Below, one piece after another: positions 6,482-60,679 of a stretch of 64,000 bases of DNA. Position 1 is the first letter of the stretch; every line of letters starts with the position of its first letter. The stretch covers positions 3,472,001 to 3,536,000 of the forward strand of contig OY783207.1 of NCBI GenBank assembly GCA_963678705.1, given 5' to 3'. The translations under genes and the position numbers were made by a program. The notes under the pieces are model-generated. The model was not told the origin of the DNA, ran no database searches, and worked only from the letters and a program-made list of their open reading frames with translations. The DNA is from Panorpa germanica (lineage: Eukaryota; Arthropoda; Insecta; Mecoptera; Panorpidae).

Positions 6482-9400
6482 TTAATCACACACAGAACGT
6501 GACGGTAAGCCGAAAATATTACCAATGCATAGATTTTTCGTTTGTACAAAATCGATATTCATTATTCTTCGGAAACTTTTGTGACAGGGACTTCCGACCG
6601 ACCACTTATTGCCCCTAAAAAAGAAATAGATGTAAACATATGTAAAGAGACATTTTTAATGTAAGAGATGCAATCATTCTTACCCTTCACAAATCCATAA
6701 TTTAACCTCTCCATTCTTAGTACCAGAAAGTAATCGATTCTGGTTTGAAGGATCCCAAGCTAAGCTTACAATATGATCCGTATGTCCCGGTAGAAGATGC
6801 AATCTTTTGCACATTGCAATATCCCATATTTGAATGTGCGTGTCTTCACCTATTGAAAAAAACCACCAATACTTTATGAAAAGTTTTGAAACTTAATAAA
6901 AGCAAATAGGATACATACCTGCTGCCGCTAATAACTTTCCATCTGGACTAAATTCAATTGTTGAAATGGATCCACCTTTTCCATTAAATAATCTAATAGC
7001 GCTTCCATCGAAAATAGAAAATATTCTTACAGTGGTATCTTTTGATCCAGTTGCTACATAACGTTCATTGGAGTGAAACCTAATGCACTACAAGATTAAA
7101 AACATATTCAAGTTACCTTTAAAATTCATGGTTTTTTTTTTATAAATATATTTACAATATGTAAATTCCATACAAAATGCTCTAATTTTAAACTTACTTC
7201 GATATCAGATATATGGCCAGCAAAGGTTCTTATAGGATTGGTACGATCACATGCCCATAGCCGAGCAGTGCAGTCCTGCGAGCCACTGGCAAAATAGTAG
7301 TCATTTGGAGATATATCAACACACCATACGGGATTATGATGAGCACTGCAGGTAAATAATGAGCGGATGACTTTCTAGATTCACAGATCTTTTCAAGGCA
7401 GTTTATGGTGTTGAAGCCTCTTATATGTGGGCTACACCGCTGCCTAATAAATATTTACCAGTGATAATATTTGCATATTATCAATCATAAGACAAATCCT
7501 CTAAACACAAATTCATGTATTATTTAACGTAATATTTTCTACCGTTACGTATTATTATTTACCAAAGTTTAACATAATGGGCTTGTGTCCTCATTTTTTA
7601 GTGGTCAATTTTTCAATTGATGATTTGAAATTGATGTTAATAAATGTGTATTGGTGTGTCTATTTTATTAAATATCTAAATATTAGACGGAGATATAGCA
7701 ATTAAAAGTTTGAATTGTAGTTTTAGCGCTAGAAATGGTCGACCATATTTGTATGACGTGAAATGCATTTTAACGTCAGTTATTTGTTGAGTAGGTCAGT
7801 GCTGTGGTAATGTTTTGTAGCTGTTGGTATTCAAATAATCAAGTTAAGTCAAAGTTTAATTTAACCCTGCTAAGGCAGACATAATATTTAAATTTTATTA
7901 TTCCTTGAAATAGCTGTAAATAATATTTGATATTTTGATATATAAATACATATAGCAGAGATTTATGAGCTGTAAGGTGGGTAACCTTACACAAGGATTG
8001 TGATGTCACATGCATTTGGAATGTGTACAACATTGAATCCAATTGAATCCCTTTAATATTTAAAAAGACAAAATGACTTTTTTAATTGTTAATATCTCCT
8101 AACATATAAGGAGTTATTAAAAAATAATTGAACATTTGAGGTTCTAGTAATCCACTTTATCAATATATAGTACACTTTTATAGAAATTAAGACATAGGAC
8201 ACAAGCCCATTCTGTAACATTATCATTAAATAAATAAAAGACATTAAAAATCTTTTACTAATATATTAATTATATTACCATTTATATTCACTTAATAATT
8301 TTTATTGTACTTTTCTTACAGTGCAACATTATGTTTTATAACTTTAGAAATGTTACGTAACAGGTAAACTTTGTTATGTTAAATAAATCTTAAATATATG
8401 TAGCTGTGTTTAGCGGACAAGCGTATAGACAATAATGTTTCTGTAAACTAATGAAACTTACCTGTATGTAGCTACTTCGCAACCAGTACTAATATTCCAT
8501 AGTTTCACCGTCGTATCCCTAGATGCTGATAGCAGATGAGGATCTGTTCTTGTAAAACGCAAACTAGTTATTTCGCCTTGGTGACCCATTAATGATTGAT
8601 CGTTATTTCTAATCCTAATATAAAGAAAATGTAAGTAATAGAGTATACGAATTGTTTAAAAGGCTATTCCAAATATACCATGAATAACCAAGTTCGTCCT
8701 TTTCACGTAGGGCCCCGAGATCCAAATCCATTTGATTTTCTTCAGAGTGATTGCATAGCAAAATATCAGAATTAGTAAAACCAAAAGCTTTTGTAGAAGT
8801 CATTTTATCCAAAGCTGCACATGTAACTCTGAAATAATTAGTATCTTATAATATAATATAATACTGCTATATTTTATAATGAATAATACTATAAGAAATT
8901 GGGGGACATACAAAAGAGACTATGGATGTTCGACAGATTGATATCCAGTATGATGATGTATGGAACAGAGATATGGGGGTGCAAGGAGCAAGAGAAGTTG
9001 GAAAGAATACAGGAGAGATATATTAAATGGATAGTAGGGCTGGACAGGTGCACGTCAGGATACATGATCATGGAGGAGCTAAAAAGGGACAATATATATA
9101 TATATATATTTAAGGATTAAAATGTATTGTACTAAGACAGAAGAATGTAATGCCGAAAAGTAAAACATTAAATAAATAAATAATAATGCTATAAGAAGTT
9201 GACGTACTTCTCTGCATTCAATAGATTAGTTATTGCCCATGTTTCCATATTTTTCATTTGATGAGCAGTCTCTCTCATTTCTTGCAATTCATCATTTACT
9301 GCAATATTAGAACTTAAACCATTCGATTCTTTACTAGTGGAAGATGAAGGATCTAGTGTCCTTTCTTCACAAGTAGGTAGTGAAGATTCTTTTGGTAAGA

Positions 9401-11985: not shown

Positions 11986-14900
11986 ATGAAACGAAGAGAT
12001 ACTATTGACTACCAAAATGATTCGGACGATGATGAACAAAGATCGCGTAAGTTCCAACAAAACTACACAAGATCTATCTATTTTAAACCTCAGGCACGGA
12101 AATGCCTGCAGTTAGGGAGCCGGAAATCGTCCCCTCCATGCTCTTTCATTATTCACTCCGTTTAGTTGTATGGATTGAGTATAATGTCAACAAAAACATA
12201 ACGTTTTGTATTTAATATCGGGGCATACTTTTTCCTAAGCCCGGCTGTAGAGTTAAATTGGGAGCGATGACACAGTTGAATGGGAATCGTTTGTTTTAGG
12301 AACAATAAAAAGCAAATACATTTGCACTTTTGTAAATAACTTTTTTATATTTAAAAGAAATACAACCCCATAGATTTTCTAACAAAAATAACTTAGTTTA
12401 AAAGAATATATTTTGCGTATTTTTAAAAAGGCATATGCAGTTTTGTTTCTTAAAAAAACACAATGTGAAGTTGAATATTTCATTCAAACGGATATATTGA
12501 ATATACTTGCTTGTACAGACTTCGACAAAAGTTTTTGACAAAGACCTCAGAACATTAGAAAGAATCATAAGTTTGTCTTAACTTTGTATGATTTGAATTG
12601 TAGTTTCCAATATTACGATAGCCACCAAAATTAATAATTAATAGTTGTAAAAGAATGCAAGAAAACACACTTAGATTAAATATTACTAGGCTTTACTTAA
12701 AATATTATAAAGAATGTAAAATAACATCCTTGTTTTGTGATTGTGGGGTAATAGTAGTTTTGTGATTGAGAGGGCTCCTTTGCTATTGTTTAATCCATTA
12801 TTAAGGGTAGATAAAAAAAAGCAAAATAGATTATAAATCGTTGTATATTAGGTAAAATTGTTTTCATAAAAAGTAACTTTTGTTATGTTAGATAAAGTTT
12901 GTATTTAGCGGGCGTAATAATTTATGCCGCGTTAGAATTAGGAACTCGTGTTATAAAAGGGTCTACTGTATGCTATAATTTTATGTATGTGTACTATAAT
13001 ATTAACACAATCTGTAAATATTTAGGTAATCGAAAAGCCAGCGCACCATGCCCCTTAGATTACTGCGATGAAGCAAAAGGTATAGTTTGTAAATGATAAG
13101 GCAATATTTCTATAAAAGTGTACTATATATTGATAAAGTGGGTTACTAGAACCTCAAATGTTCAATTATTTTTTAATAACTCCTAATATCTTAGGAGATA
13201 TTACCAATTAAAAAAGTTATTTTGTGTCTTTAATTTTTAAAGTGACATCACAACCGCTAGTTGCTATCTCTTTTATACAACAGAGCGTAAAAGAGATATA
13301 TTCTTGACAGAACTCTATGTATTTATGTATCAAAATATCAAATATTATTTACAGCTATTACAAGGAACAATAAAATTTCAATATTATGTCTGCAGTAACA
13401 GGGTTAAATAAAATAAAAACTTATTATTCGTTGACTTGACTTGAATATTTCGACTACCAACAGCTACTAAACATTACCACAGCACTGACCTACTCAACAA
13501 ATAACTGACGTATACAATGCATTTCACGTCATATAAACATGGCCGACCATTTCTAGCACTAGAACTACAATTCAAATTTTTAATTGCTAAATCTCCGTCA
13601 ACATTTAGATATTTAATAAAATAGACACGCCAATACACATTTATTAACATCAATTTCAATCAACAATTGAAAAATCAACCACTAAAAAATGAGGACACAA
13701 GCCCATTAAACAAAAAACTAAATAAAACTTACACATAACATCATAGACATATTGTAGATACTTTTACAATCACAAAATATATCTTTCAGCAAAAGATGCT
13801 GTGCATTTTCAAGGAGTGGTTACCAGACCTGAAGATCCCAATGCTCCAAGACCGCATAGTGCTGGAGGAAGGCTAACCGACCCAGTCGTCGATATATCAA
13901 CGACACGGCTGCCCAGCATGAGAAACAGGTCCACCAGTCTGATAGCACATAGTGCCATACATATGCTAACACTTGAAAATAAAGATAGATCAACAGTGAC
14001 TGTACAATCCCAAAATTTAAACCGTCATATGTCCGGTACTGAGTTTGTATCATTCGGCCAAACTGCAGGTATTGTAACAGCTCCACCTGGCGAAATTTCT
14101 CATAAAAGACAACAGAGTTCCACAGTGGATTTTAAACCAATATCAGTTTCTGGTCGTAGTACACATTTCCAATCCTTCGGAGTTAAACATGGACAAGATA
14201 TTGACGCAAGTCAGAATCAATTACCGGGGATTTCAAATACCGCACAACTGAATCAAGGACGGTTGAGCTCATCAAAGACACCAGCAGTCTTTCAGACTAG
14301 TAGAGTACCTAGTCCGTTTACTTGGCTTCTACAACCATCAAAATCTGGTAGGCCGAGTGTTAACGAATCCGACACAGCGCCTGTCAACTCCTCTCGCACT
14401 TTTATAAACTCTGCTACAACGCAAACAAAGTTGAGGACCAAGAAGAAAACTGCTTATGAAATTAAACCTGATCGTGCAGTGAAACCTGTGATTCAACTTA
14501 CTGGAGTTTCAAGCGTTGTTGCCTCAGTCGATTCCGCTCCTACCGGTCCGGAATCAGTCTGGGTAATCCCTGTAAATGCTCCAGCAGGTCTTTTGGAAAT
14601 TGTAACTACTGCTATGGGCGCCCCAAATGTTATAACCAACGACGCTGCAACATCTGAACAAAGTGAAATAGTAATTAGTGTTCCAGTCTCAGTAGTTACA
14701 AGCGCGAATGCTGTAAGAGGTAATAGTGTTCCGGGTCCCGCTCAACCTATGGATGTGGTTTATCAAGAAGGTGTTGGTCTTGTGAAAGCTGAGTTGGCTC
14801 CAAATGAGTTGCAACCAGCTGCAAATACTAAGTTATATAAAGTAAGGCCACAGGACCTTCATCCGAGTGAAATAATCAACATGCCCGAAGCTGGGGTAAT

Positions 14901-19154: not shown

Positions 19155-22100
19155 ATCCAGAAGATATGAGTACAAATCCTCGTCAACCAGTGTTCATAAA
19201 AAATCTAAAAGGTAGCACTAATCCTTCGGGATCTATTTACAAAATTGCTGACTATGGTAACAGGCCGCCCATTGTTGAAATTATAACTGGATTTAAGCAT
19301 TATCGGAGGTGCTGTTATACCAAGCAAGTCCTGTCCAACTTCAATATGGTGGTCCCCGTTGGACACTTGTAAGCAAATCGTAAAGTTGAAGTAGAAATTA
19401 TGGATTAGGAACCCATTAAAATGGAAGCCGAGTACTTATTTAAATTGGCGTTTGGTTTTAGATATGGATTAATTGGACCTAAAAAATGCGGGAAAACTAC
19501 CGTGATTAAAGTTGTTGTTCGTCGACACAAATTGACCTTTGGCACTCTAAGATTATTTGGAACTACAGCTATAATTGAGGATAACTGTAAAATGGGTTAC
19601 ATGACACAACAATTGGGAATTGATGAAACTTTTACGATGATAGAATTATTAAAATATTATGGACAACTTCTGAAACTAAATTCATTTTACGTCAATGAAG
19701 TAAAGCATATTTTTCTAATAACCTGCCTATGTTATTGAAATTTATTTATCAGAAATTATAAATTTCAGAGAATTCAAGTTTTAGCTAGCCTTTTGGAAAT
19801 TCCCAGGGAAAATATTAGAATTGAGAAAATGAATGAGAACAATAAAAGGAAGATAAGTTTTGCATTAGCCGTGTTGCATGAGCCGGAGTTATTGATATTA
19901 GATGAACCAACGGCGGGGGCTGATCCCGTGGTAAGGTAATGACTAAGGTAATGTACTTTACGTTTAATTTACGTAACGTTTATATCTAAATGTGGTTAAT
20001 CATGTCCAGGCATTTGATATGGCAGCATCTTTTGTTGGTGACAGCAAATCAAAACATGACGGTTCTTCTAACGTCCCACGATTTGGAAGAAGGAGTTGAT
20101 TGTGATTCAGTCGGCCTGATGCGAAATGGAAGGACCTTAATTCAAGGCCCACCCAACAAAGTTTTAGAAACATTAGGGTCTCATCAACTAACTGGGGCGT
20201 TTTATATTTTAGGGGCTCAAGCAGGGGAATCCGAGGCACGTTTAATGTAATCTTTACAATAAACACTTGTTATTATATATATTTATTTGACTTTAATAAT
20301 TTTTCCGTTAGTTAGACAAATCAAATTCAAATACAGCTAAAAAGATCGTTGCAGCTAATGAAATGGCCACGCAACGATTAGTGGAGGATTCTCCTTCGAA
20401 AGGATTCAACGTGGATACAAGGGAATTTAGATTTGTCGGTCCTGCGCAAGGATTCTCGGATGAAACGAGAAGGCAACAGTATGTATGCATTTGCAATGGG
20501 CTTGTGTCCTATGTCTTAATTTCTATAAAAGTGTACTATATATTGATAAAGTTTGCTACCATAACCTCAAATGTCCAATTATTTGTTAATAACTCCTTAT
20601 ATCTTAGGAGATATTAACAATTAATGCTATCTCTTTTATACAACAGAACGAAAAAGAGATATATTCTTGACAGAATTCTGACAAGTTTACAGGTTACCAA
20701 CCTTACAGCTCATAAATCTCTGCTATATGTATTTATATATCAAAATATCAAATATTATTTACAGCTATTTCAAGGAACAATAAAATTTCTATATTATGTT
20801 TGCTGTAACAGGGTTAAATAAAATAAAAACTTATTATTCTTTGACTTGACTTGATTATTTCGACTACCAACAGCTACAAAACATTATCACAGCACAACAA
20901 ATAACTGACGTATAAAATGCATTTCACGTCATACAAATATGGCCGACCATTTCTAGCGCTAAAACTACATTTCAAATTTGTAATTGCTATATCTCCGTCA
21001 ACATTTAGATATTTAATAAAATAGACACGCCAGTACACATTTATTAACATCAATTTCAATCAACATTTGAAAAATCGATCACTAAAAAATGAGGACACAA
21101 GCCCATTTGGTAATAAAACCAAACAACAAAGACAAAAAACAGAGACAAATTAGCAATGGACAAATGTGTCTCCAAATCAGTTATTCTGGTAAACGCTGGT
21201 AAAAAAAGAAATATTTTACACAATGATGATTTAGGATTCCATCTTGAAAACCTGTTGTTTTTTTTGGCTTATGTGAGTGTTCTACTTTAATTAATTTCAG
21301 AAAAACTGGCGTAAAACGTTTTGTATCGCTATGGGTCCCAAATTCCACTCCAAGTTGTCGTCGCCTTACCTACTTATGCTGCCGATGCTACACAAGATTA
21401 TTTCGCCGGTGTTGGTTTTGGTTGCTCTTGCTTCTTCTGCCACTAATTTACATCGTTCTGTTTGGAATGGCGATAGGAAGTATGCCGTATTCTTTGAGTC
21501 TTGGTATAGGTACGTCACTCCATTTATAAATAGGTTGCATGCAAGCTGCAAATGAAGCCAGACGTATTCTGCATCTCAGTTCTGTCCACGTAATATCATA
21601 CAAGCTGTAAATAGGGTCATTTCTCTGAAGTTTAGCATTGAGAAAGCAAGTTTTTTCATTGAGAAAATGTCAAGTGATGAAGAAGATGTGATTATAGCAT
21701 ACGCTTTTATTAGAAGACGACGAATCAGACGCAGAATGTATTGGCTTCATCCATACATCGAAAAGAACATTAACTGCAGATTGTTTGTTGCTGCATGAGA
21801 GGATAATTCAGTATTTCAATCAGTATCCCGAATGAGTATTGTTCAATAATATGAACAAAATTTACGTCTGCATCGTGCAGTACGCTAGAGCTATAACCTT
21901 AGACCATATTTATAGCCTATGTTTTCTATAGGTTAAAAGTGTGTCCAAAATGTGTGCGAGAGAGAAAGCTATATGTTCTCTATGCGCATGCGTCGAAAGT
22001 GACAGCTGTTTAGATATAATAAATATGAATATTCTATTAAGATATAATAAATATTAAATATGTAAAGAAATTATATTTCTTTCGTTGGTACAAAGCTCGT

Positions 22101-25100
22101 GTGTCGGTAAAACAGTGACCGTTCAGTGAAAACATATACTCATGAACGCCATAGATGTTGTGTAGCGATAACGGCCAACACAGTTGATATTTGAAGTGGA
22201 CAGAACTCACGTTTTTAGTTATATTTATATATAATACAGTTTAGTTAGCGTATGAAGTGACGCTACGTGGACAGCAGGCCTAACTATGTAATTTGCCATA
22301 AAAGGGTCACTTTTTGCTTAAAAAATACTTAAACAAAAGAAAACTTGAAACTATTTTTTTGCCAGATATATTGTCACTTATATTGTCAATGTTTTCCATA
22401 GTGTTATTTTTAAAAAAGGTATATGTTTATTGTCTTCTACCAATCTGAACCACCATTTAGTAGGGGCCTCTGAATCGGGCTCAAATTGTCTTAACGTATG
22501 TCTAAATCCCATAATGATAAAGTGATATGTCTTACAGTAAATGAACAAACAAAGCACTGTGACGTCGCACGATTTCAAAGCAAATTCAGTTGTAGCATGC
22601 TGATTGGTCTAGATAATGTGACTGTGAAACAAATAGCATACGATGTAAGTATCAAATTGAATCTAAGAAAAACGTAGGCTGTTTTTTGAAGTGACAAGCA
22701 CAGTATTCAATTTATGTTTACTGTTGTTGGTATCACATGAGTTTTATAAGTACCAGTCTGTACCGGACATACATATAATATAACATGCATTCCATATAAG
22801 ACCAGGTCTTAAAATCCAACGATCACTTTGTTTAGACCTAACCTTAAAACTGCAAATTAAATACCCTTCTTTAATACTTGTTTCCACTTCTTCACGTTTT
22901 ACTATTTATGAATTAAAACTATAAATAACTTGGTGCTTCTACTTCCGCTATTTATAGATTTAAAAACTAGTCCCGTTATTTTTATCAGGGTTGCATTAGA
23001 GTCATTTGGTTTTATTTTATACAACATTCTTACTACTAAAATGATGAACCCAAATACATCCTTTGTTTTTCTGTCGTCCTTCAAGGTCGTTGCGTTTCCG
23101 CTGCACGACTTGTTATTTATGACTTCACGCGACGTGTGTTTTTATATGTGGGTCAGAAAGTTTAAGGATTATTAAATGCGATACTTACTGACACAATTTT
23201 TATGAATGATTTTGAATATGTCCATTTTAATTTTAAATAGAATTGCATGGGGTTACAAAACTCGTGAACCTTCTTTCGAAACGTTTTTTCAAACTCATAA
23301 GATTACCATCTACAGTAAAAAAGGACAGTTAATATTTTCCTTAATTTTTCCTTCTTAAATAGACAGTGCCGGAAGGATTAGAAGCATTAAATATTGGAAT
23401 CCTGGACGGATTACTTGTTTTCACTTACAACGAGAGAATGATATCTTCGTTCGTGTCAACAGATGTTTCACAAGTCAGATGTCGGTAATAGATGATCATC
23501 ATTAACAAAGTTGCGATGATTTCAAAGTCTGCTGATTAGTTTTAATGTAAAATATATTTTCTAGGCCATACGTTGCGTTACTTTTAAAGAAAAATTCTTT
23601 TATGGTTCAGCAAATACTGAAAGAACAAGTGGGAGAAGCTTTTTCAAGAGTATCGGTTTATGGAACCTATGACGGAATGGATTCCGTGCGGGTAGTTGTC
23701 TTGCCTTTCATTTATTACAAATAGTTTTCTTTAATTAAGTTTTTTAGGTGAAACTTCTTTAGTAAAAAACAATATTTTAGTATTCTGGCATAAAGTTTTT
23801 TTTACAACAAACATATAGCGCCATCTGTTAGGGAGTAGCTTGTATTGTTAAGGATTCTATCAACAGATGGCGTATCAATTTCATAGCGCCTAGATAGTAT
23901 GCAACCTAAGTTACGCCAGCTTATTATTAACAAAGAGTTTAATAGTTTTTAACGAAAGTTTAGAAGGCTAACTAACACACGTTATTTTATTTGGCCATTT
24001 TTCAGATTGTACCATACGGCAAAAGTACTGGAGAGTGCATTACGGAACAGCATGTTATGTTGGGGGCCATCATTGGAATGATTTTCTGCATTGGAGCATT
24101 GTTGGGGGGCTGGACTATGGCTCAGAAGCATTATTTGCAGATTGTAGATAGACTTTTATTAACTGGTATTAAAAATTGATTTACTATTGTACAGGTTCAC
24201 AACCGATTTACTATTCAGCACTATTTGCTTTTAGGAATAACGTTGCCTGAAATTTATATAACTCACTTGACAGTGTGGATCACTATCATCATGATACAGA
24301 CCTTCATAATGTTGATGATCATTTTCGCACTCACTGAACTTCCTTTCACTAATGAAGAAATGTCCGCCATGTTTAAAAGTTATGGGATAACAGTGCCTAC
24401 AGCATTCTGTGGCATTGCTTTCGGTGAGTATCGAATGTCAGAAAAGATTCAAATATGTGTTACGAAAAAGAATATTTTCATTTAAAAGAGCTAACTTTTT
24501 AGAAAATTATAAATGTAATTACAAGTTTCTTTTGCGCCAAGTTGTATGCAACTTAAATAACACTGTTTGAATATTCAAATTTCATGGACATTTTTTTAAA
24601 AATTATTTCTTGATTCTTTGAAATATTTTGATGCAGTTATGTTCGTTATGCTCTAAATTAGAGAACTGCGTCATTACATTTTAAATAACTAACCGTATCT
24701 GGATTTTATGCGACCTTTTTTGAATTCATGGACATTTTTATTCTAAAATTTTTTTTCGATTCTTTGAAATATTTTGATGCAGTTATGTTTGTTATGTCCC
24801 AAATTAGAGAACTGCGTCATTACATTTTAAATAACTAAGCGTATCTGGATTTTATGCGACTTTTTTAAAATTCATGGACTTTTTTGTTCTAAAATTTTTT
24901 TTCGATTCTTTGAAATAGTTTGATGCAGTTATGTTCGTTAGGCTTTAAAATAAAGAACTGCTTCATTATATTTTAAATAACTAAGCGTATCTGGATTTTA
25001 TGCGACTTTTTTAAAATTCATGGACTTTTTTTTCTAAAATTTTTTTTCGATTCTTTGAATTATTTTGATGCAGTTATGTTCGTTATGCTCTAAATGAGGG

Positions 25101-28100
25101 AACTGCTTCATTACATTTTAAATAACTAAGCGTATCTGGATTTTATGCGACCTTATTTAAATTCATGGACTTTTTTTTTCTAAAATTTTTTTTCGATTCT
25201 TTTGAAATATTTTGATGCAGTTATGCTCGTTAGGCTTTAAATAAGGGAACTGTTTCATTATATTTTAAATAACTAAGCGTATCTGGATTTTATGCGACCT
25301 TTTTTAAATTCATGGACTTTTTTTTCTAAATTTTCTTTTCGATTCCTTGAATTATTTTGATGCAGTTACGTTCGTTATGCTCTAAATAAGGGAACTGCTT
25401 CATTACATTTTAAATAACTAAGCGTATCTGGATTTTATGCGACCTTTTTTAAATTCATGGACTTTTTTTTCTAAAATTTTTTTTTGATTCTTTGAAATTT
25501 TTTGATGCAGTTATGTTCGTTATGCTCTAAATTAAGGAACTGCTTCATTACATTTTAAATAACTAAGCGTATCTGGATTTTTTGCGACCTTTTTTAAATT
25601 CATGGACTTTTTTTTTCTAAAATTTTTTTTCGATTCTTTTGAAATATTTTGATGCAGTTATGTTCGTTAGGCTTTAAAATAAAGAACTGCTTCATTACAT
25701 TTTAAATAAATAAGCGTATCTGGATTTTATGCGACTTTTTTTAAATTCATGGACTTTTTTTCCTAAAACTAAAATATTTATATTTTTGAAAAATGATTTA
25801 TGTTTCCCAACGTAGTTTTTTATGCTGATTCCAAAATTGAAATCCATTTTTAATTATCTGTTATAGTTTTCGAGAAATCTGCGTGTAAAATTGTTGACTA
25901 TTTTTTACTTTTAAAATGCTCATATCTCGTAAACCAAAAGACTTACATAAAAATGAATTCCAGATTTGAAATCAGCATTTAAAACTACATTAAAAACCAT
26001 TAAAAAATCAACAATTTTTTTTCTTCAATTTTTAAGAAAAGTAAGAAGACTATAGTCTTCTTACTTTTCTCAGAAAACACTTTTTTTATTTTGGCTCATG
26101 ATACATGTTCTCTAACGTAGTTTTAAATGCTGATTTCAAATCTGGAATTCATTTTTATGTAAGTCTTTTGGTTTACGAGATATGAGCATTTTAAATTCAA
26201 AAATAATGAAAAACTTTACACGCAGATTATTCGAAAACCATAAGAGATAATTAAAAATGGTTTTCAATTTTGGAATCAGCATAAAAAACTACGTTAGAAA
26301 ACATGTATCATGCGCCAAAATAAAAAAAGTGTTTTTTGAGAAAAGTAAGAAGACTATATATAGCCTTCTTACTTTTCTTAAAAATTGAAGAAAAAAAATT
26401 GTTGATTTTTTAATGGGTTTTAATGTAGTTTTGAATGCTGATTTCAAATCTGAAATTCATTTTTATGTAAGTCCTTTGGTTTACGAGATATGAGCATTTT
26501 AAAGTAAAAAATAGTCAAAAATTTTACACACAGATTACTCGAAAACTATAACAGATAATTGAAAATGGATTTCAATTTTGGAATCAGCATAAAAAACTAC
26601 GTTAGAAAACATAAATCATTTTTCAAAAATATAAATATTTTAGTTTTAGGAAAAAAAGTCCATGAATTTAAAAAAGGTCGGATAAAATCCAGATACGCTT
26701 AGTTATTTAAAATGTAATGAAGCAGTTCTTTATTTTAAAGCCTAACGAACATAACTGCATCAAAATATTTCAAAGAATCGAAAAAGAATTTTAGAAAAAA
26801 AAAGTCCATGAATTTAAAAAAGGTCACATAAAATCCAGATACGCTTAGTTATTGAAAATATAATGAAGCAGTTCCCTTATTTAGAGCCTAACGAACATAA
26901 CTGCATCAAAATATTTCAAGGAATCAAAAAAAAATTTTAGAAAAAAAAGTCCATGAATTTAAAAAAGGTCACATAAAATCCAGATACGCTTAGTTATTAA
27001 AAATATAATGAAGCAGTTCCATAATTTAGAGCATAACGAACATAACTGCATCAAAATATTTCAAAGAATCGAAAAAAAAATTTAGAAAAAAAGAGTCCAT
27101 GAATTTAAAAAAGGTCGTATAAAATCCAGATACGCTTAGTTATTTAAAATGTAATGAAGCAGTTCCCTTATTTAGAGCATAACGAACATAACTGCATCAA
27201 AATATTTCAAAGAATCGAAAAAAAAATTTAGAAAAAAAAAGTCCATGAATTTAAAAAAGGTCGCATAAAATCCAGATACGCTTAGTTATTTAAAATATAA
27301 TGAAGCAGTTCCTTAATTTAGAGCCTAACGAACATAACTGCATCAAAATATTTCAAGGAATCAAAAAAAAATTTTAGAAAAAAAAGTCCATGAATTTAAA
27401 AAAGGTCACATAAAATCCAGATACGCTTAGTTATTGAAAATATAATGAAGCAGTTCCATAATTTAGAGCATAACGAACATAACTGCATCAAAATATTTCA
27501 AAGAATCGAAAAAAAAATTTAGAAAAAAAAAGTCCATGAATTTAAAAAAGGTCGCATAAAATCCAGATACGCTTAGTTATTTAAAAAGTAATGAAGCAGT
27601 TCTCTAATTTAGAGCATAACGAACATAACTGCACCAAAATATTTCAAAAAATCGAAAAGAAAATTCAGAAAAAAAGTCCATGAATTTAGAAAAGGTCGCA
27701 TAAAATTCAGACACGCGTAGGTATTTAAAAAGTAATGAAGCAGTTCTTTATTTTAAGGCTTGACGAACATAACTGCATCAAAAAATATCAAGGAAATGTA
27801 AATTTTTTTTTAGAAAAAAATATCCATGAATAAAATAAAAGGTCTTGTAAATCCAGAAAATTGTAGATATTTAAAATTGAATTCAACAGCTTTGTAATTT
27901 AAAGTATAGCGGACATAATCTTATGAAAAAAAGTTCAGATATGGTAATTTTACGTATAGATAAAAATGCCCATGAATTTGTATAAAATACTGAAAAGAAA
28001 AGGTTATTTACTTTAATATAATTTATCGTGTTAATCAGATTGCATATAAATCAGGCGCAATAAAATTGACATGCCATCTACTGGACAAATATTCAACTGA

Positions 28101-29013
28101 TATATATTTTAAGCTATTTTTTAATAGATGTCGCTAGTTTGTAGTTCGAATCTTCGACTCACTAATATTATGCATTTTAATTATAGCTTTTGTTAAGATT
28201 TCCTATGTTTTGCTTTTTACGATATCTAAGATTTACGCCAGAAGATAGACTCCTACGCATTGAGTGCTTACTTATTTATAATGTTATCCTTTCTATATTA
28301 TGTGCGAATGAGTGAAATTCAATCATTACAAAGTTGTACAAGATTAACCGCGATCCTAAGTCCCAATTAGGACCTACAAATTAGTTAATTTAATCCTTTA
28401 ATAACAAAGAACTAAATGTGTATAAAATATCTTTACAGGTATCCTAATATTTAGTATTATTACATATGTACCAGGAACGATTAGAGTCACCGTATATTGT
28501 TTACTGCCCATGATGCTTTTAAGCGGTAAGCTATTTTATAGAATTAATTATTTGGTAAATTGTTTTATCAATTTATATTTTAGGTATATTTTGGCCATTG
28601 GAGAGCATGTATCATATTCTACGACCAATTAGCTGGACACTTCCGACGACACACGCGGTAATAGCGATGGATGGAATTATGATACACTACCTACCTTACA
28701 CATCTATTCAAGTAAGTTTCTTCCAGATCTTTAGAAGCAAGTTATCTTGAAGGCACATTTGCATTTCTCATTAAAACACTCGGCCTCGATACTGTTCTTC
28801 CCTAACGATACATCTTTATATAATACTGTTGCTTTCATTTTGCTATAAAATTAGTTATACGTATATGTATTTAGTAAGTATACCTTTTAAAATCATATAC
28901 ATATAAGATTTCCCTTTTATTTCTTCTAGGTGTGGCCTGGACTTGTTTATCCATTATTTTGTGGAGTGCTTTTCTATTTCATTGCGGTCGGAATGTTAGC
29001 ACTACACAGTTGA
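19155..29013 (+). CDS. ABC half-transporter, ABCH/ABCG-like (NBD then six TM segments)
   Basis: Membrane transporter with one nucleotide-binding domain followed by an ABC2-type membrane domain, closest in style to insect ABCH proteins. Exons: 19155-19368, 19462-19699, 19769-19935, 20010-20239 or 20246, 20316 or 20312-20478, 21301-21509, 23241-23314, 23363-23484, 23565-23691, 24006-24165, 24235-24423, 28439-28525, 28584-28711, 28930-29013 (about 730 codons). NBD motifs: Walker A is GPKKCGKTT (Lys for the second Gly), Q-loop MGYMTQQ, signature region MNENNKRKIS instead of LSGGQ, Walker B LLILDEPT, D-loop GADP, H-loop LLTSHDLEE. Membrane segments include WLLLLLPLIYIVLFGMAIG, GAIIGMIFCIGALLGG, WITIIMIQTFIMLMIIFAL, CGIAFGILIFSIITYV, LLPMMLLSGIFWPLESM and the C-terminal FYFIAVGMLALHS. 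All junctions keep phase except 20246/20312, where only a weak donor at 20240 or a frameshift explains the join. Introns hold a MITE, a Harbinger-like fragment and a huge palindrome. Family is sure; substrate and activity are not. Confidence 0.85.
20496..21106 (+). mobile_element. GGGCTTGTGTCC-family MITE, copy 3
   Basis: Complete copy with both terminal repeats (ATGGGCTTGTGTCCTATG and GAGGACACAAGCCCAT). It starts only 18 bases after the exon ending at 20478 of the ABC gene, so it fills most of that intron. Confidence 0.8.
21538..21895 (+). mobile_element. Harbinger-like fragment, copy A
   Basis: Shares over 300 bp with copies at 44192-44545 and 60727-61155, starting catgcaagctgcaaatgaag. 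The small frame from 21667 reads [19 protein letters not shown], like the N-terminus of PIF/Harbinger (HARBI1-type) transposases where YWxHP precedes the DDE domain. It is broken by a stop after LFVAA. It lies in an ABC-gene intron 28 bases past the exon ending at 21509. Confidence 0.6.
21896..23240 (+). other. ABC-gene intron sequence without recognised features
   Basis: Remainder of the 1.7 kb intron between exons ending 21509 and starting 23241. The ORFs at 22378-22578 and 22930-23175 have no coding character or fitting splice phase. I see nothing else specific. Confidence 0.4.
23818..23872. repeat. Short inverted repeat (GCGCCATCTGTT)
   Basis: GCGCCATCTGTT and AACAGATGGCG are separated by about 32 bases in an ABC-gene intron, making a potential small stem-loop. 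It may be the remnant of a dispersed element. No function inferred. Confidence 0.5.
26035..26070. repeat. Perfect 36-nt palindrome in the centre of the foldback array
   Basis: agaaaagtaagaagacta is followed directly by its exact reverse complement. A near copy with a short spacer lies at 26338-26379 (gaagactatatatagccttc core). Confidence 0.9.
26338..26379. repeat. Second palindrome in the foldback centre
   Basis: aagtaagaag and cttcttactt flank a short TA-rich core. Together with 26035-26070 it brackets the ~300 bp middle of the giant inverted repeat, which is itself partly self-complementary at its ends. Confidence 0.85.
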
Positions 29014-39400: not shown

Positions 39401-42400
39401 ATAACTAAGTGTAATATAAAATAATATGTGTTTTGTATATTTGTTTCTTTTTGATTTGTTTATCATTTGAGATATAAGAGATATACCTCTTTTCCAGTAA
39501 TGCAATAAATGGGCTTGTGTCCTATGTCTTAATTTCTATAAAAGTGTACTATATATTGATAAAAATGTTCAATTATTTTTAATAACTCCTTAAATGTTAA
39601 GAGATATTAACAATTAAAAAAGTAATTTTTTCTCTTTAATTATTAAAGTGATTCAACGTTGTACACATTCCAAGTGCATGTGACATCACAATCCTTGTGT
39701 AAGGTTACCAACCTTACAGCTCATAAATCTCTGCTATATGTATTTATATATTAAAATATCAAATATTATTTACAGCTATTTCAAGATTCAATCAAATTTA
39801 AATATTATGTCTGCCTTAGCAGGGTTAAATTAAATAAAAAATTTGACTTGATTATTTGACTACCAACAGCTACAGAACATTACCACAGTACTGACCTACT
39901 CAACAAATAACTGACGTTAAAATGCATTTCACGTCATACAAATATGGCCGACCATTTCTAGCGCTAAAACTACAATTCAAACTTTTAATTGCTATATCTC
40001 CGTCAATATTTAGATATTTAATAAAATAGACACGCCAATACACATTTATTAACATCAATTTCAACCAACAATTGAAAAATCGACCAGTAAAAAATGAGGA
40101 CACAAGCCCATTTATGTTTTTCTGACGTAATAAAACTTTTTTGTAAGATTATTTAATGTTACATATAAAATAAAAATATTAGAATTTGTTTTTTATGTGT
40201 GAAAATGTAATATGATTATGTTAAACTTCGAACAATAATAAAACGTAACGTTACGTAAAAAATATTACGTTAGATTACGTTTTATGTTTACTGAGTTGTT
40301 GTCAACTTGAAGTCTTACCTGTGTCATCTTTGTTTTCTTCTCGGAATGCTTTTGGAGGTCTAGGCGTCCTCTTATCCCGTCTGGACCGCGCTTTATCATC
40401 AGTTTGTATCTTGTCCCTCGTTGGAGGCGATGCGGATGAAACAGGCTGATCAGTATATACTGAAACAAAAATACAATTAAATACAACACAAAAGAATGCC
40501 TTATTGAGCACTCATGGAAGCATGGTTAGAGAAACAGAAATTTTTGTTCCTTTTATCCATAATACGTTACATCGAAGTTTAATAATTAGAATTTGTAAAT
40601 GGGCTAATGTCCTATGTCTTAATTTCTATAAAAGTGTACTATATATTGATAAAGTGGGTTACTAGAACCTCAAATATTCAATTATTTGTTAATAACTCCT
40701 TATATGTTAAGAGATATTAACAATTAAAAAGTCATTTTGTCTCTTTAATTATTAAAGGGATTCATCGTTGTATTCCAAATGCATGTGACCTCACAACCGC
40801 TAGTTGCTATCTCTTTTATACAACAGAGCGTAAAAGAGATATATTCTTAACAGAACTCTTACAAGTTTACAGGTTACCAACCTTACAGCTTATAAATCTC
40901 TGCTATATGTATTTATATATCAAATATTATTTATGTCTGCCGTAACAGGGTTAAATAAAATAGAAATTTATTATTCTTTGAGTTGACTTGATTATTTCGC
41001 TACAAAACATTACCACAGCACTGAGCTAATCAACAAATAACTAACGTATAAAATGCATTTCACGTCATACAAATGGCCGACATCTCTAGTGCTAAAACTA
41101 CAATTCAAATTTTTAATTGCTATATCTCCGCCAACATTTAGATATTTAATAAAAGAGACACGCCAATACACATTTATTAACATCAATTTCAATCAACAAT
41201 TGAAAAATCGACCAATAAAAAATGAGGACACAAGACCATTCACATATTAATTCTCTTATATTAATTTTTTTCCTTACCTTGTCTGACTTCTATAGCTGGA
41301 ACAATACTAGCAATTTCAGATTGTGGGGGTTGTGGTTCCGGTACAGATGCCCGTTTAGGGGATTCTTCTTTCCATGATGATGCTCTTTGTGGCGGTTCTG
41401 AGTGACAGCTGTTATAACGAGGTCTAGTTGCATTAGACGCACCATCTGAAAAAACAAATTGCTACTATAAGTATCTAATCAGAACTTACTCTTAGTAAGT
41501 AAATCAAATAAACACCGATTATTCGAAAATCGTAACAGATAGTTAGAAAATAAATAAATAACGTTATATGTCAAAATAAAAAAAGTTTGGTTTTGTAAAT
41601 TTAACTTCGTCCTATTTCCCATGGTGGCTTTTACCACTGAAGACCTACTGAGCCAGCTTTTATGGTGTCGTAGCACGTCATATATGTGAACTACACTACT
41701 GCCTATTACATTTTAATGCATATGTAAGAACATAATCGAAATAATTTTTGCGCAAAAGTATCATTTACTCCTTTACCTGGAAAAAAGCGAGTTGAATATG
41801 TATGGTATACAATACTTTATTACCTTAAGAACGGATATCATCTAGAACGTATTGTTTTAACGTCGTGTGAATCTCAAGAACAGGGAAAATGGAGACGCCT
41901 TTTTTATGTCAAGCAACGCTCTTGAGATGCCTATCTCTTTAAGACTATTACTACATATTTACAAATGGGCTGGACTGGGCATGCAATAACAAAATGTGAT
42001 ACTCATAAATTGTGCGGTATTCAATAAAATTAAATTTAAATCTAAAATATTACGCATGATTGTAGATGCACCATGGTATATTACAAACGAAAGACTGCAC
42101 CACGATCTTGCCATGCCTATAGTTAGCTAAGAAATTGAAACTCTGACCAACGTAATGAGACAGGATTACCAGCAGTAGACTGAAGAGGAAAAACTCAAAT
42201 CGTGCAAGTTGAACTTTAATGTAACCATAGAGATATAAGAATAGAGTACGCGAAGGGTACGGCCGCGTATAAGAGGAAGCGATAAAGGCAAAGAGAGAGA
42301 GATAAGTGCCGAGTGTCCTATCTCTCTTTCTAGCCGAACTGGTAGCAAGCAAACAGACGCAGTGATCGTCTAGAAAGATGACACTCGGCAGCTATCTCTC

Positions 42401-58410: not shown

Positions 58411-58799
58411 TTTATTTGTTGATTGAAATTGATGTTAATTTTAATAGCAATTAAAAATTTGAATTGTAGTTTTAGCGCTACAGATGTCGGCCATATTTAT
58501 GATGTAACATGTCTGCACTCTTAAGAGTAGATCAGTTATTTTCTCAATGGATAAGAGTTCTGTGTTGAATATGCTATTTCTTTTACGCTGTGTTGCATAA
58601 AAGAGATAGCAACTTAGCGGACGTGACGCCACATGTTTTGGAATGTTCTATAACGTTCATTCCCTTTACTTTTTTAATTGTTAATATCTCTTAACATATA
58701 AGGAGTTATTATAAAATAAATGGACATTTGAAGTTCTAGTTTATCTATTAAAATTATGTAGTACAGTTTTATAGAAATTAATACATAGGACACAAGCAT
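58411..58799 (-). mobile_element. GGGCTTGTGTCC-family MITE, copy 6 (degraded)
   Basis: Runs from ttgttgattgaaattgatgt to ataggacacaagcat. It lacks the CTCATTTTTTAG end and about 200 bp of the interior. Confidence 0.7.
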
Positions 58800-58904
58800 A
58801 TTGGGTTGTAAACTTATTTTTAGGGGTCCATCTTTTAATTCTTTATTGAAATATTGGTTATTAAATATATACTAAACGTAATAATAATGAAATGTAAATG
58901 GATA

Positions 58905-58990
58905 AAATGTAAATAAAATGAAGTAAGAAGGGCGAAAAAAGGACCGTGGTCCTAAGAAGCCCGTGAAGTATTAATAAAAAAAAAATATAT
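58905..58990 (+). mobile_element. 3' tail of a non-LTR retrotransposon
   Basis: ggaccgtggtcctaagaagc and ccgtgaagtattaat followed by an A-run parallels the end of the element at 48176 (gtgcctaggaagcccgagaa). Only the last ~80 bases are present. Confidence 0.5.
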
Positions 58991-59045
58991 ACGAGTATAT
59001 ATATACTATTATATATACTATATTAACAAATTAAAAAAATGGAAT

Positions 59046-59165
59046 ATTAGCAGCGAAAAATGATATTTTCGTTGTGAAAAATGATCTTTTCGCCGCAAAA
59101 AATGAATTTTGTCGCCGTGAAAAATGATCCTTTCGGCGAAAAATATAATTTTCGCCGCCGAATAT
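59046..59165. repeat. GCGAAAAATGAT-type minisatellite
   Basis: Five or so imperfect units of a ~20-bp motif alternating gcgaaaaatgat and ttttcgccgc. Related units recur at 63735-63785. Confidence 0.65.
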
Positions 59166-60123
59166 TTTTTAAAAATATAATTTTTTTACTTTTTGATGAA
59201 ATAAATACTTAAAATTATTTTTAAGGTGGGTGCCTGAAAATTGCCAACTATATTATTAATTATCTCCGATTCTAAATGGTCAAAAATTCTAAAACTTTGA
59301 GATTTATTAATAATCGTTCTTATTAGCATATAAACAAACATTTTAAAAAACCTATAGATATTAATTTATATTAAATAAAGTATATTACAGACACACCATG
59401 TATACACACTAAGTACATTAAAAATAAAGCTAAAACAGTAGCTGGGAATGGCCCTTAAGTGATGGTAATACAGTAAATGTGGCACAATGACGTACTACAA
59501 ATAAATTTGCATTGAATAATTTGTAGTTTCCATTTCAGGCTTTGTACATTATAAACCTACGCTCTTTTTAGTACCTTCGTACACATTGCGTCTATTACAG
59601 TCTTCACTACAGTCTATTCCATTTAGAACCTCTAGCACCAAAATAAAACTGTTTTTATCCATTGATAATTGTGTGGGAATGTTAAAACGACTAACTGCAA
59701 ATAACAGTTAGATTTTTTGCCATATGTAAATTTCATTGTAAGGCGCTGAACTATAATAACAAATCACTAATATATTAATATCACAACCTCTGTAATTAAT
59801 AATACTAGCACATAATAATTAGTCTCGATCGACTCCTAATACAAGTAAAAACGTCGTGTGTGGGACGGAACTGGACGGGCAATGGGACTGTCCGATTTAA
59901 TTTGTTTATGACAAAAATGTGTTTAAAAGTTTTTTAATTATGGAGCCCGTGTTTAATGAAACACGATTAAGGTGGAGTTTATATGGATTTTTAATTTGAT
60001 GATATTAATTATAAATACCGAAGCAAATTGTTTTTGTTACGCATATTTAAAATTAATTATTTAAGCTGAAATTGTAAGCTTGATTCCGTTAAACACAAGC
60101 TTGAAATTACTTTATAGATTGAG

Positions 60124-60679
60124 AATGGGCTTGTGTCCTCATTTTTTAGTGGTCGATTTTTCAATTGTTGATTGAAATTGATGTTAATAAATGTGTATTG
60201 GCGTGTCTATTTCATTAAATATCTAAATGTTGACGGAGATATAGCAATTAAAAATTTGAATTGTAGTTTTAGCGTTAGAAATGGTCGGCCATATTTTTAT
60301 GACGTGAAATGCATTTTAACGTCAGTTATTTGTTGAGTAGGTCAGTGCTGTGGTAATGTTCTGTAGCTGTTGGTAGTCGAATAATCAAGTCAAATCAAAG
60401 AATAATAAGTTTTTATTTTATTTAATCCTGCTGAGGCAGACATAATATTGAAATTGATTGTTACTTGAAATAGCTGTAAATAATATTTGATATTTTGATA
60501 TATAAATACATATAGCAGAGATTTATGAGCTGTAAGGTTGGTAACCTTACACAAGGATTGTGATGTCACATGCACTTGGAATGTGTACAACGTTGAATCC
60601 CTTGAAGAGAGAATAATTGAAGAGACAAAATGACTTTTTTAATTGTTAACATATACGGAGTTATTAAAAAATAATTGAA
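60124..60679 (-). mobile_element. GGGCTTGTGTCC-family MITE, copy 7 (truncated)
   Basis: Starts with ATGGGCTTGTGTCCTCATTT and follows the family to aataattgaac, then stops about 45 bp short of Harbinger-like copy C. The distal terminal repeat is missing. Confidence 0.75.

What the first reader, a model, noticed from the sequence alone, without database searches (positions are those of the whole stretch)
24575..27985. Kilobase-scale foldback palindrome of 8 + 8 units inside an ABC-gene intron
Seen: two mirror-image arrays of a 145-147 bp repeat around a 0.9 kb centre that holds further palindromes. Copy number matches exactly on both sides. Known: Drosophila FB elements have long inverted repeats made of tandem subunits, and long intronic hairpins can feed endo-siRNA (hpRNA) pathways. 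Inference: this may be an undescribed foldback family, or a domesticated hpRNA locus. The monomer is close to nucleosome length, which may be chance.
Basis: partly seen in the sequence, partly recalled or inferred. Interest (0 to 1): 0.82.

Follow-up and report, generated by a model that had tools for sequence, protein, structure and literature searches.

The report
Palindromic repeat arrays carried by Helitrons
The intron holds one copy of a large family of mirror-image repeat arrays scattered through this genome; some copies moved as passengers of rolling-circle transposons, and neighbouring copies look as if they overwrite each other's insides.

Summary
Observation confirmed. Eight full ~146-bp units (24581-25745) face eight full units (26667-27830, plus a decayed ninth) around an 0.88-kb, itself palindromic centre, filling most of a 4.0-kb GT-AG intron. 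It is not a single hpRNA locus: a unit 23-mer occurs 2,499 times in the genome (1,271 + 1,228). All 20 fetched copies, and 12 of 12 two-strand clusters among the first 100 listed hits (contig C1), run + units, then - units. Arm lengths elsewhere are usually unequal, so 8 = 8 is probably chance.

Many copies carry on one outer side a canonical Helitron 3' end (hairpin, 11 nt, CTAG, host T; 20 of 20 loci examined). Three C21 copies are complete read-through Helitrons: they start at host A|TC of a ~2,500-copy Helitron, bypass its own CTAG, and carry the whole palindrome to a second CTAG|T. The window copy lacks that end; its right end (CTAG|T at 28137) is only weakly Helitron-like, its left end undefined. 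Its centre is 97% identical to a copy 270 kb away while their shared end module is 73%, which suggests local gene conversion. Foldback arms made of tandem repeats are known (Tetris); my paper searches showed none as Helitron cargo.

The parts
24424..28438 (+). host intron (GT..AG) that contains the element
   Evidence: reading frame stays open on both sides of the splice borders; an ABC_tran match lies upstream at 19409-19738, 22.4 bits, below Pfam's cut-off of 25; that both belong to one gene is inferred
24534..24565 (+). inner part of a B-type end module on the left (GCGCC..ATGCAACTTAAATAACACTG); outer part not recognised, left terminus undefined
   Evidence: motif and alignment comparison with other copies
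24581..25745 (+). left arm: eight full units of 144-147 bp
25768..26643 (.). centre, itself palindromic and internally repeated (876 bp)
   Evidence: direct repeat 26113-26327 / 26421-26635, 89%; MFE -526 v mean -141 of 20 mononucleotide shuffles; 871 bp of it used as query
26667..27830 (-). right arm: eight full units in reverse orientation, the outermost (27685-27830) 82% to consensus
27831..27970 (-). decayed ninth unit of the right arm
   Evidence: 72% match over 27837-27918; 71% for the family frame ending at 27968
27990..28137 (+). right end module of type B, ending ..ATGTCGCTAG with host T next; weak Helitron-3'-like layout
   Evidence: alignment with L009, L010 (both sides), L015, L020 (both sides) and part of L022; position and weak hairpin, -3.9 kcal/mol

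Best explanation
It is one copy of a dispersed, non-coding palindrome family: end module - tandem ~146-bp units - palindromic centre - inverted units - end module. SHOWN: the same inside-out polarity in every two-armed copy examined; canonical Helitron 3' ends that face outward beside many of the arrays; and three copies on contig C21 that are complete Helitron insertions in which a small upstream Helitron read through its own 3' end and took the whole palindrome to the second terminator. INFERRED: the family spreads, at least in part, as such read-through cargo, because a palindrome with an outward-facing terminator offers a usable 3' end to a Helitron arriving from the other side. INFERRED: insides (arms and centre) of neighbouring copies are homogenised by gene conversion or other local exchange, arm length drifts by unequal exchange, and the ends age. 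The window copy is best read as an old insertion without a recognisable A-type end, whose interior was homogenised with the copy 270 kb away.
For: 20 of 20 fetched copies mirrored; 12 of 12 two-strand clusters among the first 100 listed unit hits are + then -. End A: 20 of 20 loci examined stop at CAGCTAG followed by T, with about 13 kinds of flank, arrays adjoining in 20 of 20; hairpin 11 nt from the end; seven of the eight end-A sites on C1 fall in the range covered and all seven lie 430-731 bp from an array, pointing away from it. L025, L023, L016: left limit host A|TC[CT]TATATTATAATG, bypassed internal CTAG|T, right limit CTAG|T, flanks different, lengths 6,599, 5,703 and 7,134 bp, no 8-10 bp duplication. 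That 5' end occurs 2,498 times in the genome, control 0; RepHel genes are plentiful (150 scored matches of 893 candidates). Inside v ends: W and L009 centre 97%, unit consensus 95.2%, shared end module 73%; L014 and L019 unit consensus 99.3% with nearly unrelated flanks. Same-contig copies are more alike (93.7 v 87.9%, 0 of 5000 label shuffles).
Against: The window copy itself has no end A and no TC start, and its left terminus is undefined. Only 8 of the 20 fetched copies have end A in full, 2 in part, 2 only short scraps, 8 none. Three further related copies (L017, L024, L026) share less of the left part and do not show the TC start. On C19 several end-A copies share the same flank beyond CTAG, one of them inverted on both sides for at least 1.5 kb, so larger duplications also spread the family. 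End A was not tied to a particular autonomous Helitron. No empty site was found: the searches did not complete. Only 1 of 19 mirror-register tests passes a strict correction, and the window copy shows none. Similarity falls with distance on C20 but not significantly on C4, where the window lies, or on C21.
Confidence: 0.6

Rival explanations
1. A classical foldback DNA transposon (FB, Tetris, Galileo or MULE type) moved by a cut-and-paste transposase that binds the repeated units; Helitron ends are later additions.
For: Anatomy is that of Tetris: flanking domain, tandem-repeat domain, inner domain, middle (PMC4079207). Eight of 20 fetched copies show no end A at all.
Against: No 8-10 bp duplication at the three copies with both ends defined; end A stops at CTAG|T in 20 of 20 loci examined. 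Not tested: target-site duplications at copies without end A, whose ends are undefined; no search for a cut-and-paste transposase was made.
Confidence: 0.2
2. A chromosome-regional satellite that spreads without transposition, by segmental duplication, extrachromosomal circles and gene conversion, the palindrome being remade by inverted duplication.
For: Same-contig copies are more alike; insides are younger than ends in W-L009, L014-L019 and L011-L012 (units 97.2%, end 83.6% over 214 nt); the inverted duplication at C19:4.76 Mb reaches at least 1.5 kb past both ends at 99.3%.
Against: The three composite Helitrons on C21 have precise limits at both sides and different flanks; end A has precise limits with about 13 kinds of flank.
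Confidence: 0.15
3. A domesticated hpRNA locus: the intron is spliced out, folds and feeds siRNA production.
For: The sense strand of 24581-27976 folds to -2100 kcal/mol with 1,116 left-arm to right-arm pairs and helices of up to 92 bp, v -624 for one mononucleotide shuffle; it lies in an intron.
Against: Any foldback element folds; the unit 23-mer occurs 2,499 times in the genome, and nothing singles this copy out. No small-RNA data were available.
Confidence: 0.05

Closest known systems
Tetris foldback transposon of Drosophila virilis (PMC4079207; outline, abstract and 12 passages seen)
   Same: Non-autonomous palindrome whose arms hold a variable number of AT-rich tandem repeats (220 bp there), an inner domain and a middle; copy number varies between arms and copies.
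   Different: Tetris has 8-10 bp target-site duplications; here the three copies with both ends defined have Helitron limits and none. Unit sequence and length differ.
Canonical Helitrons and their read-through capture (Helraiser paper PMC4778049; abstract in a listing and 12 passages seen)
   Same: 5' TC, 3' hairpin 11 nt before CTAG, A|T target, capture of flanking DNA when the first terminator is bypassed.
   Different: The captured cargo is a ~3-4 kb palindrome with tandem-repeat arms; terminators of this kind stand beside many palindromes in the genome.
Cg_HINE elements of the Pacific oyster (PMC7492417; abstract in a listing and 12 passages seen)
   Same: Rolling-circle non-autonomous elements that carry short satellite-like arrays and disperse them.
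   Different: The oyster arrays lie in one orientation relative to their flanks without exception, as the paper says; here they are always mirrored in the copies examined.
Chromosome-specific satellites of Drosophila X and dot chromosomes (PMC4079201; outline and abstract seen)
   Same: Repeats over-represented on, and typical of, particular chromosomes.
   Different: The abstract does not describe palindromes or Helitron ends.

Membership tests
Helitron (C21 copies L025, L023, L016) | 5' TC directly after host A | tested here: met
   3 of 3 copies
Helitron (C21 copies L025, L023, L016) | 3' CTRR (here CTAG) directly before host T | tested here: met
   3 of 3 copies, and 20 of 20 end-A loci
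Helitron (C21 copies L025, L023, L016) | palindrome/hairpin about 11 nt before the 3' end | tested here: met
   9-bp predicted stem, 11 nt before the end (RNA parameters)
Helitron (C21 copies L025, L023, L016) | no target-site duplication; empty site A|T | tested here: inconclusive
   no duplication visible in 3 of 3; empty-site searches not answered
Helitron (window copy) | 5' TC and 3' hairpin + CTRR | tested here: inconclusive
   right end CTAG|T at 28137 with a weak hairpin (-3.9 kcal/mol); no end A; left terminus undefined
Helitron | RepHel gene in the element (autonomous) or in the genome (non-autonomous) | tested here: met
   in the genome only: 150 scored PF14214 matches, all listed rows over the cut-off; none tied to these elements
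Foldback element (FB/Tetris type) | long inverted arms made of tandem subunits, with a middle domain | tested here: met
   window copy and 20 of 20 fetched copies mirrored; centre recognised in 19 of 20
Foldback element (FB/Tetris type) | 8-10 bp target-site duplication | tested here: not met
   absent in the 3 copies with both ends defined; not testable in the window copy, whose left end is undefined
HINE / non-autonomous Helentron | tandem repeats in one orientation between the end modules | tested here: not met
   mirrored in 20 of 20; the oyster paper states one orientation without exception
HINE / non-autonomous Helentron | subterminal inverted repeats, insertion at TT | not tested
   -
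hpRNA locus | 21-22 nt siRNAs from the arms | not testable with these tools
   no small-RNA data

The most novel reading that the evidence does not exclude
The family is a portable, bidirectional Helitron terminator: a palindrome with Helitron-3'-like modules (A or B) facing outward on both sides, so that a Helitron reading in from either flank passes the inverted module, crosses the whole foldback and stops at the far one, carrying it along although the palindrome has no 5' end of its own; once dispersed, the palindromes exchange their insides with neighbours on the same chromosome and so evolve as chromosome-regional satellites that are not contiguous.
Probability: 0.3. Interest if true: 0.8.

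Novelty: new variant of a known kind. Interest (0 to 1): 0.6.

Why it matters
It ties together two classes of mobile DNA that are usually kept apart, foldback palindromes and rolling-circle Helitrons; it gives natural examples of the read-through capture that was shown for a Helitron in cultured cells; and one assembly offers a large set of palindromes, roughly 300 by a rough estimate, for testing how palindromes form, spread and homogenise.

Tried and rejected
Rejected or demoted: single-locus domesticated hpRNA (many relatives); assembly inversion (20 of 20 independent places mirrored); plain tandem satellite without mirror structure; equal 8 + 8 as a sign of function (other copies unequal). 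Rfam at gathering thresholds gave 0 matches and ARAGORN 0 genes in the window.

Led nowhere: the window copy's left terminus and target site; a 5' TC for end module B (conserved bases run past the only candidate A|TC); tying end A to a particular autonomous Helitron (I compared by eye the positions listed and saw none close, but one search lists only 150 of 893 candidates). The organism was not identified. The left limits of L017, L024 and L026 are unexplained.

Selection and weak points: of the 20 fetched copies 9 were chosen because the listing already showed both strands; the other 11 showed one strand in that cut-off listing and all proved mirrored. Six further listed places were asked for and not obtained. 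The end-A pattern itself required the T after CTAG, so its 98 sites say nothing about that T; the 20 of 20 come from a similarity search and do not have this flaw, but they are the best 20 of 40 scored matches (181 candidates). The copy estimate is rough: 2,499 exact 23-mers, present in 176 of 355 sampled full units, about 17 full units a copy in 21 copies, hence about 5,000 units and 300 copies; the sample was picked for similarity to the query. Mirror-register tests: 19 copies tested, L021 and L028 left out for short arms.
Full report
1. Observation. The stretch 24581-27976 holds eight full ~146-bp units on the left, an 876-bp centre and eight full units in reverse on the right, plus a decayed ninth. 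A 28-nt anchor from the unit occurs 15 times in the window, all here, against none in 100 shuffles. Of the bases aligned to its own reverse complement 91.8% are identical; as a single strand it folds to -2100 kcal/mol with 91.6% of bases paired, v -624 for one mononucleotide shuffle. It fills most of a 4,015-bp GT-AG intron whose flanking exons stay in frame. An ABC_tran match below the curated cut-off lies upstream at 19409-19738; that it belongs to the same gene is inferred.

2. It is a family. A search of the window's own assembly (464 Mb, 249 contigs) with one unit gives 234 matches from 40 scored of 1,579 candidates; the centre gives 120 matches from 40 scored of 1,317. An exact 23-mer of the unit occurs 1,271 times forward and 1,228 reverse, the control never. 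I fetched 20 other copies. All 20 have + units, then - units; 19 of 20 have a recognisable centre, L013 having only a 44-bp gap between its arms. A check that does not depend on my choice: the first 100 listed 23-mers (all on contig C1) form 21 clusters, 12 of them with both strands, and 12 of 12 run + then -. Arms are unequal in most copies, so the equal numbers in the window are probably chance.

3. End A. C21 copies share an outer end that stops at ..CTCGTTGTGTTGCAACGGGTCGAACAGCTAG. A search with 130 bases of it gave 40 scored matches of 181 candidates, and I took the 20 best as loci. In 20 of 20 the shared sequence ends at CTAG with T next; the sequence after that is of about 13 kinds (seven C19 ends share one kind, two C15 ends another); in 20 of 20 the array adjoins. 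The predicted hairpin lies 11 nt from the end. This fits the canonical Helitron 3' end as stated in PMC4067079 and PMC4778049 (passages seen). A looser pattern has 98 sites in the genome, its control none. Of the eight on C1, seven lie in the range covered, and all seven are 430-731 bp from an array and point away from it. Among the 20 fetched copies 8 have this end in full length, 2 in part, 2 only short scraps, 8 none; the window copy has none.

4. Composite Helitrons. Three C21 copies (L025, L023, L016) share sequence to the left of the array as far as host A|TC[CT]TATATTATAATG, and, apart from about 11 AT-rich bases between L023 and L016, I found no match beyond; to the right they share sequence up to CTAG|T of end A. 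Between these limits lies another 3' end with CTAG|T, in L025 and L016 ..TTGCGACGGGGGTAAAAGCTAG|T, in L023 with the stretch before it deleted. It belongs with the TC start: that 5' end occurs 2,498 times in the genome, and 3' ends of this general type 3,676 times, controls 0; on C1 such ends pair at about 0.8-1 kb, e.g. 445688 with 446497 and 1113876 with 1114871. The three insertions are 6,599, 5,703 and 7,134 bp long. They are what the read-through model predicts: the first terminator is bypassed and everything up to the next one is carried along (PMC4778049, passages). RepHel genes are plentiful in the genome (150 scored PF14214 matches of 893 candidates). L017, L024 and L026 share less of the left part and do not show this start.

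5. The window copy. Its right end module (type B) is shared with L009, L010 (both sides), L015, L020 (both sides) and partly L022, and reads ..ATGTCGCTAG|T at 28137 with a weak hairpin. Bases after CT vary between copies, so B as a Helitron 3' end is a suggestion only. Its left side keeps only the inner part of such a module. Its nearest relative in the sample, L009, lies 270 kb away: the centres are 97% identical and the unit consensuses 95.2%, but the shared B modules only 73%, within the 66-78% seen between all seven B modules, and the other ends do not match. L014 and L019 on C7, 143 kb apart, have unit consensuses 99.3% alike; unit by unit the inner ones mostly match at 95-99% (one at 90%), the outermost at 79-93%, and in 1.5 kb of flank the only match at E 1e-3 is one of 34 bp. 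L011 and L012 on C20, 85 kb apart: 97.2% v 83.6% over 214 nt of one end. C21 copies by contrast match at 91-100% in both end regions. I infer that insides are exchanged between neighbours while ends are not. Over 21 copies, unit consensuses agree at 93.7% within contigs (36 pairs, 10 of them from the recent C21 group) and 87.9% between contigs (174 pairs); 0 of 5,000 label shuffles reached this. Similarity falls with distance on C20 (rho -0.77, pairs not independent) but not significantly on C4 (-0.19) or C21 (-0.32).

6. How the mirror is kept. In L016 the arms match in mirror register with a shift of two units (97.0 v 90.5%, 0 of 2,000 permutations), in L010 without shift (95.0 v 85.4%, 11 of 2,000); L023 (16) and L027 (32) are weaker and the other 15 of 19 tested copies, the window's included (639), weaker still; only L016 passes a strict correction for 19 tests. 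At C19:4.76 Mb the inverted duplication runs at least 1.5 kb beyond both outward A ends at 99.3%. Arm-to-arm copying or fresh inverted duplication therefore seems to happen at least at times. The outermost full unit is less like its locus consensus than the inner ones in 30 of 41 arms, as expected for arrays homogenised from within.

7. Known or new. Foldback elements whose arms are tandem arrays are known; Tetris is the nearest in anatomy (PMC4079207, outline and passages), with 8-10 bp target-site duplications that are absent in the three copies testable here. Satellite-like arrays carried by rolling-circle elements are known too, but in one orientation (PMC7492417, passages). My nine paper searches, limited to open PubMed Central text, listed no title or abstract on a mirror array as Helitron cargo; I did not read the listed papers in full.

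8. Position in the chromosome. The palindromes may be confined to part of the chromosome; not followed further.

Noticed in passing
contig C1 of the window's genome (outside the window): No exact unit 23-mer lies below 20.55 Mb of C1 and the first 100 then follow up to 27.81 Mb, while at least 100 Helitron 5' ends lie below 11.83 Mb: possible compartments.
   Followed up: partly
C1:11814703-11820611 and similar places (outside the window): Helitron 5' ends spaced 48-56 bp apart in short series on one strand, as if insertions or starts were stacked.
   Followed up: no
C19:4764538-4768001 (L043, L044): End A on both sides, and the inverted duplication continues at least 1.5 kb outward on both sides at 99.3% identity.
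   Followed up: partly
window 39508-41244 and 58444-60652: Dispersed repeats of up to 272 nt at 97% in inverted orientation, beginning AATGGGCTTGTGTCC; the same start occurs in an insert left of the L025 array.
   Followed up: no
window 7575-8211, 13106-13708, 20495-21107: Three copies of another dispersed repeat, also starting AATGGGCTTGTGTCC, 91-97% alike.
   Followed up: no
window 23817-23930 (approximate): A separate B-like module (GCGCCATCTGTTAGGGAGTAGC .. ACAGATGGCG .. GCGCC..ATGCAACC) upstream of the exon, without an array; its hairpin-like ends resemble CTCF motifs (recalled, not tested).
   Followed up: no
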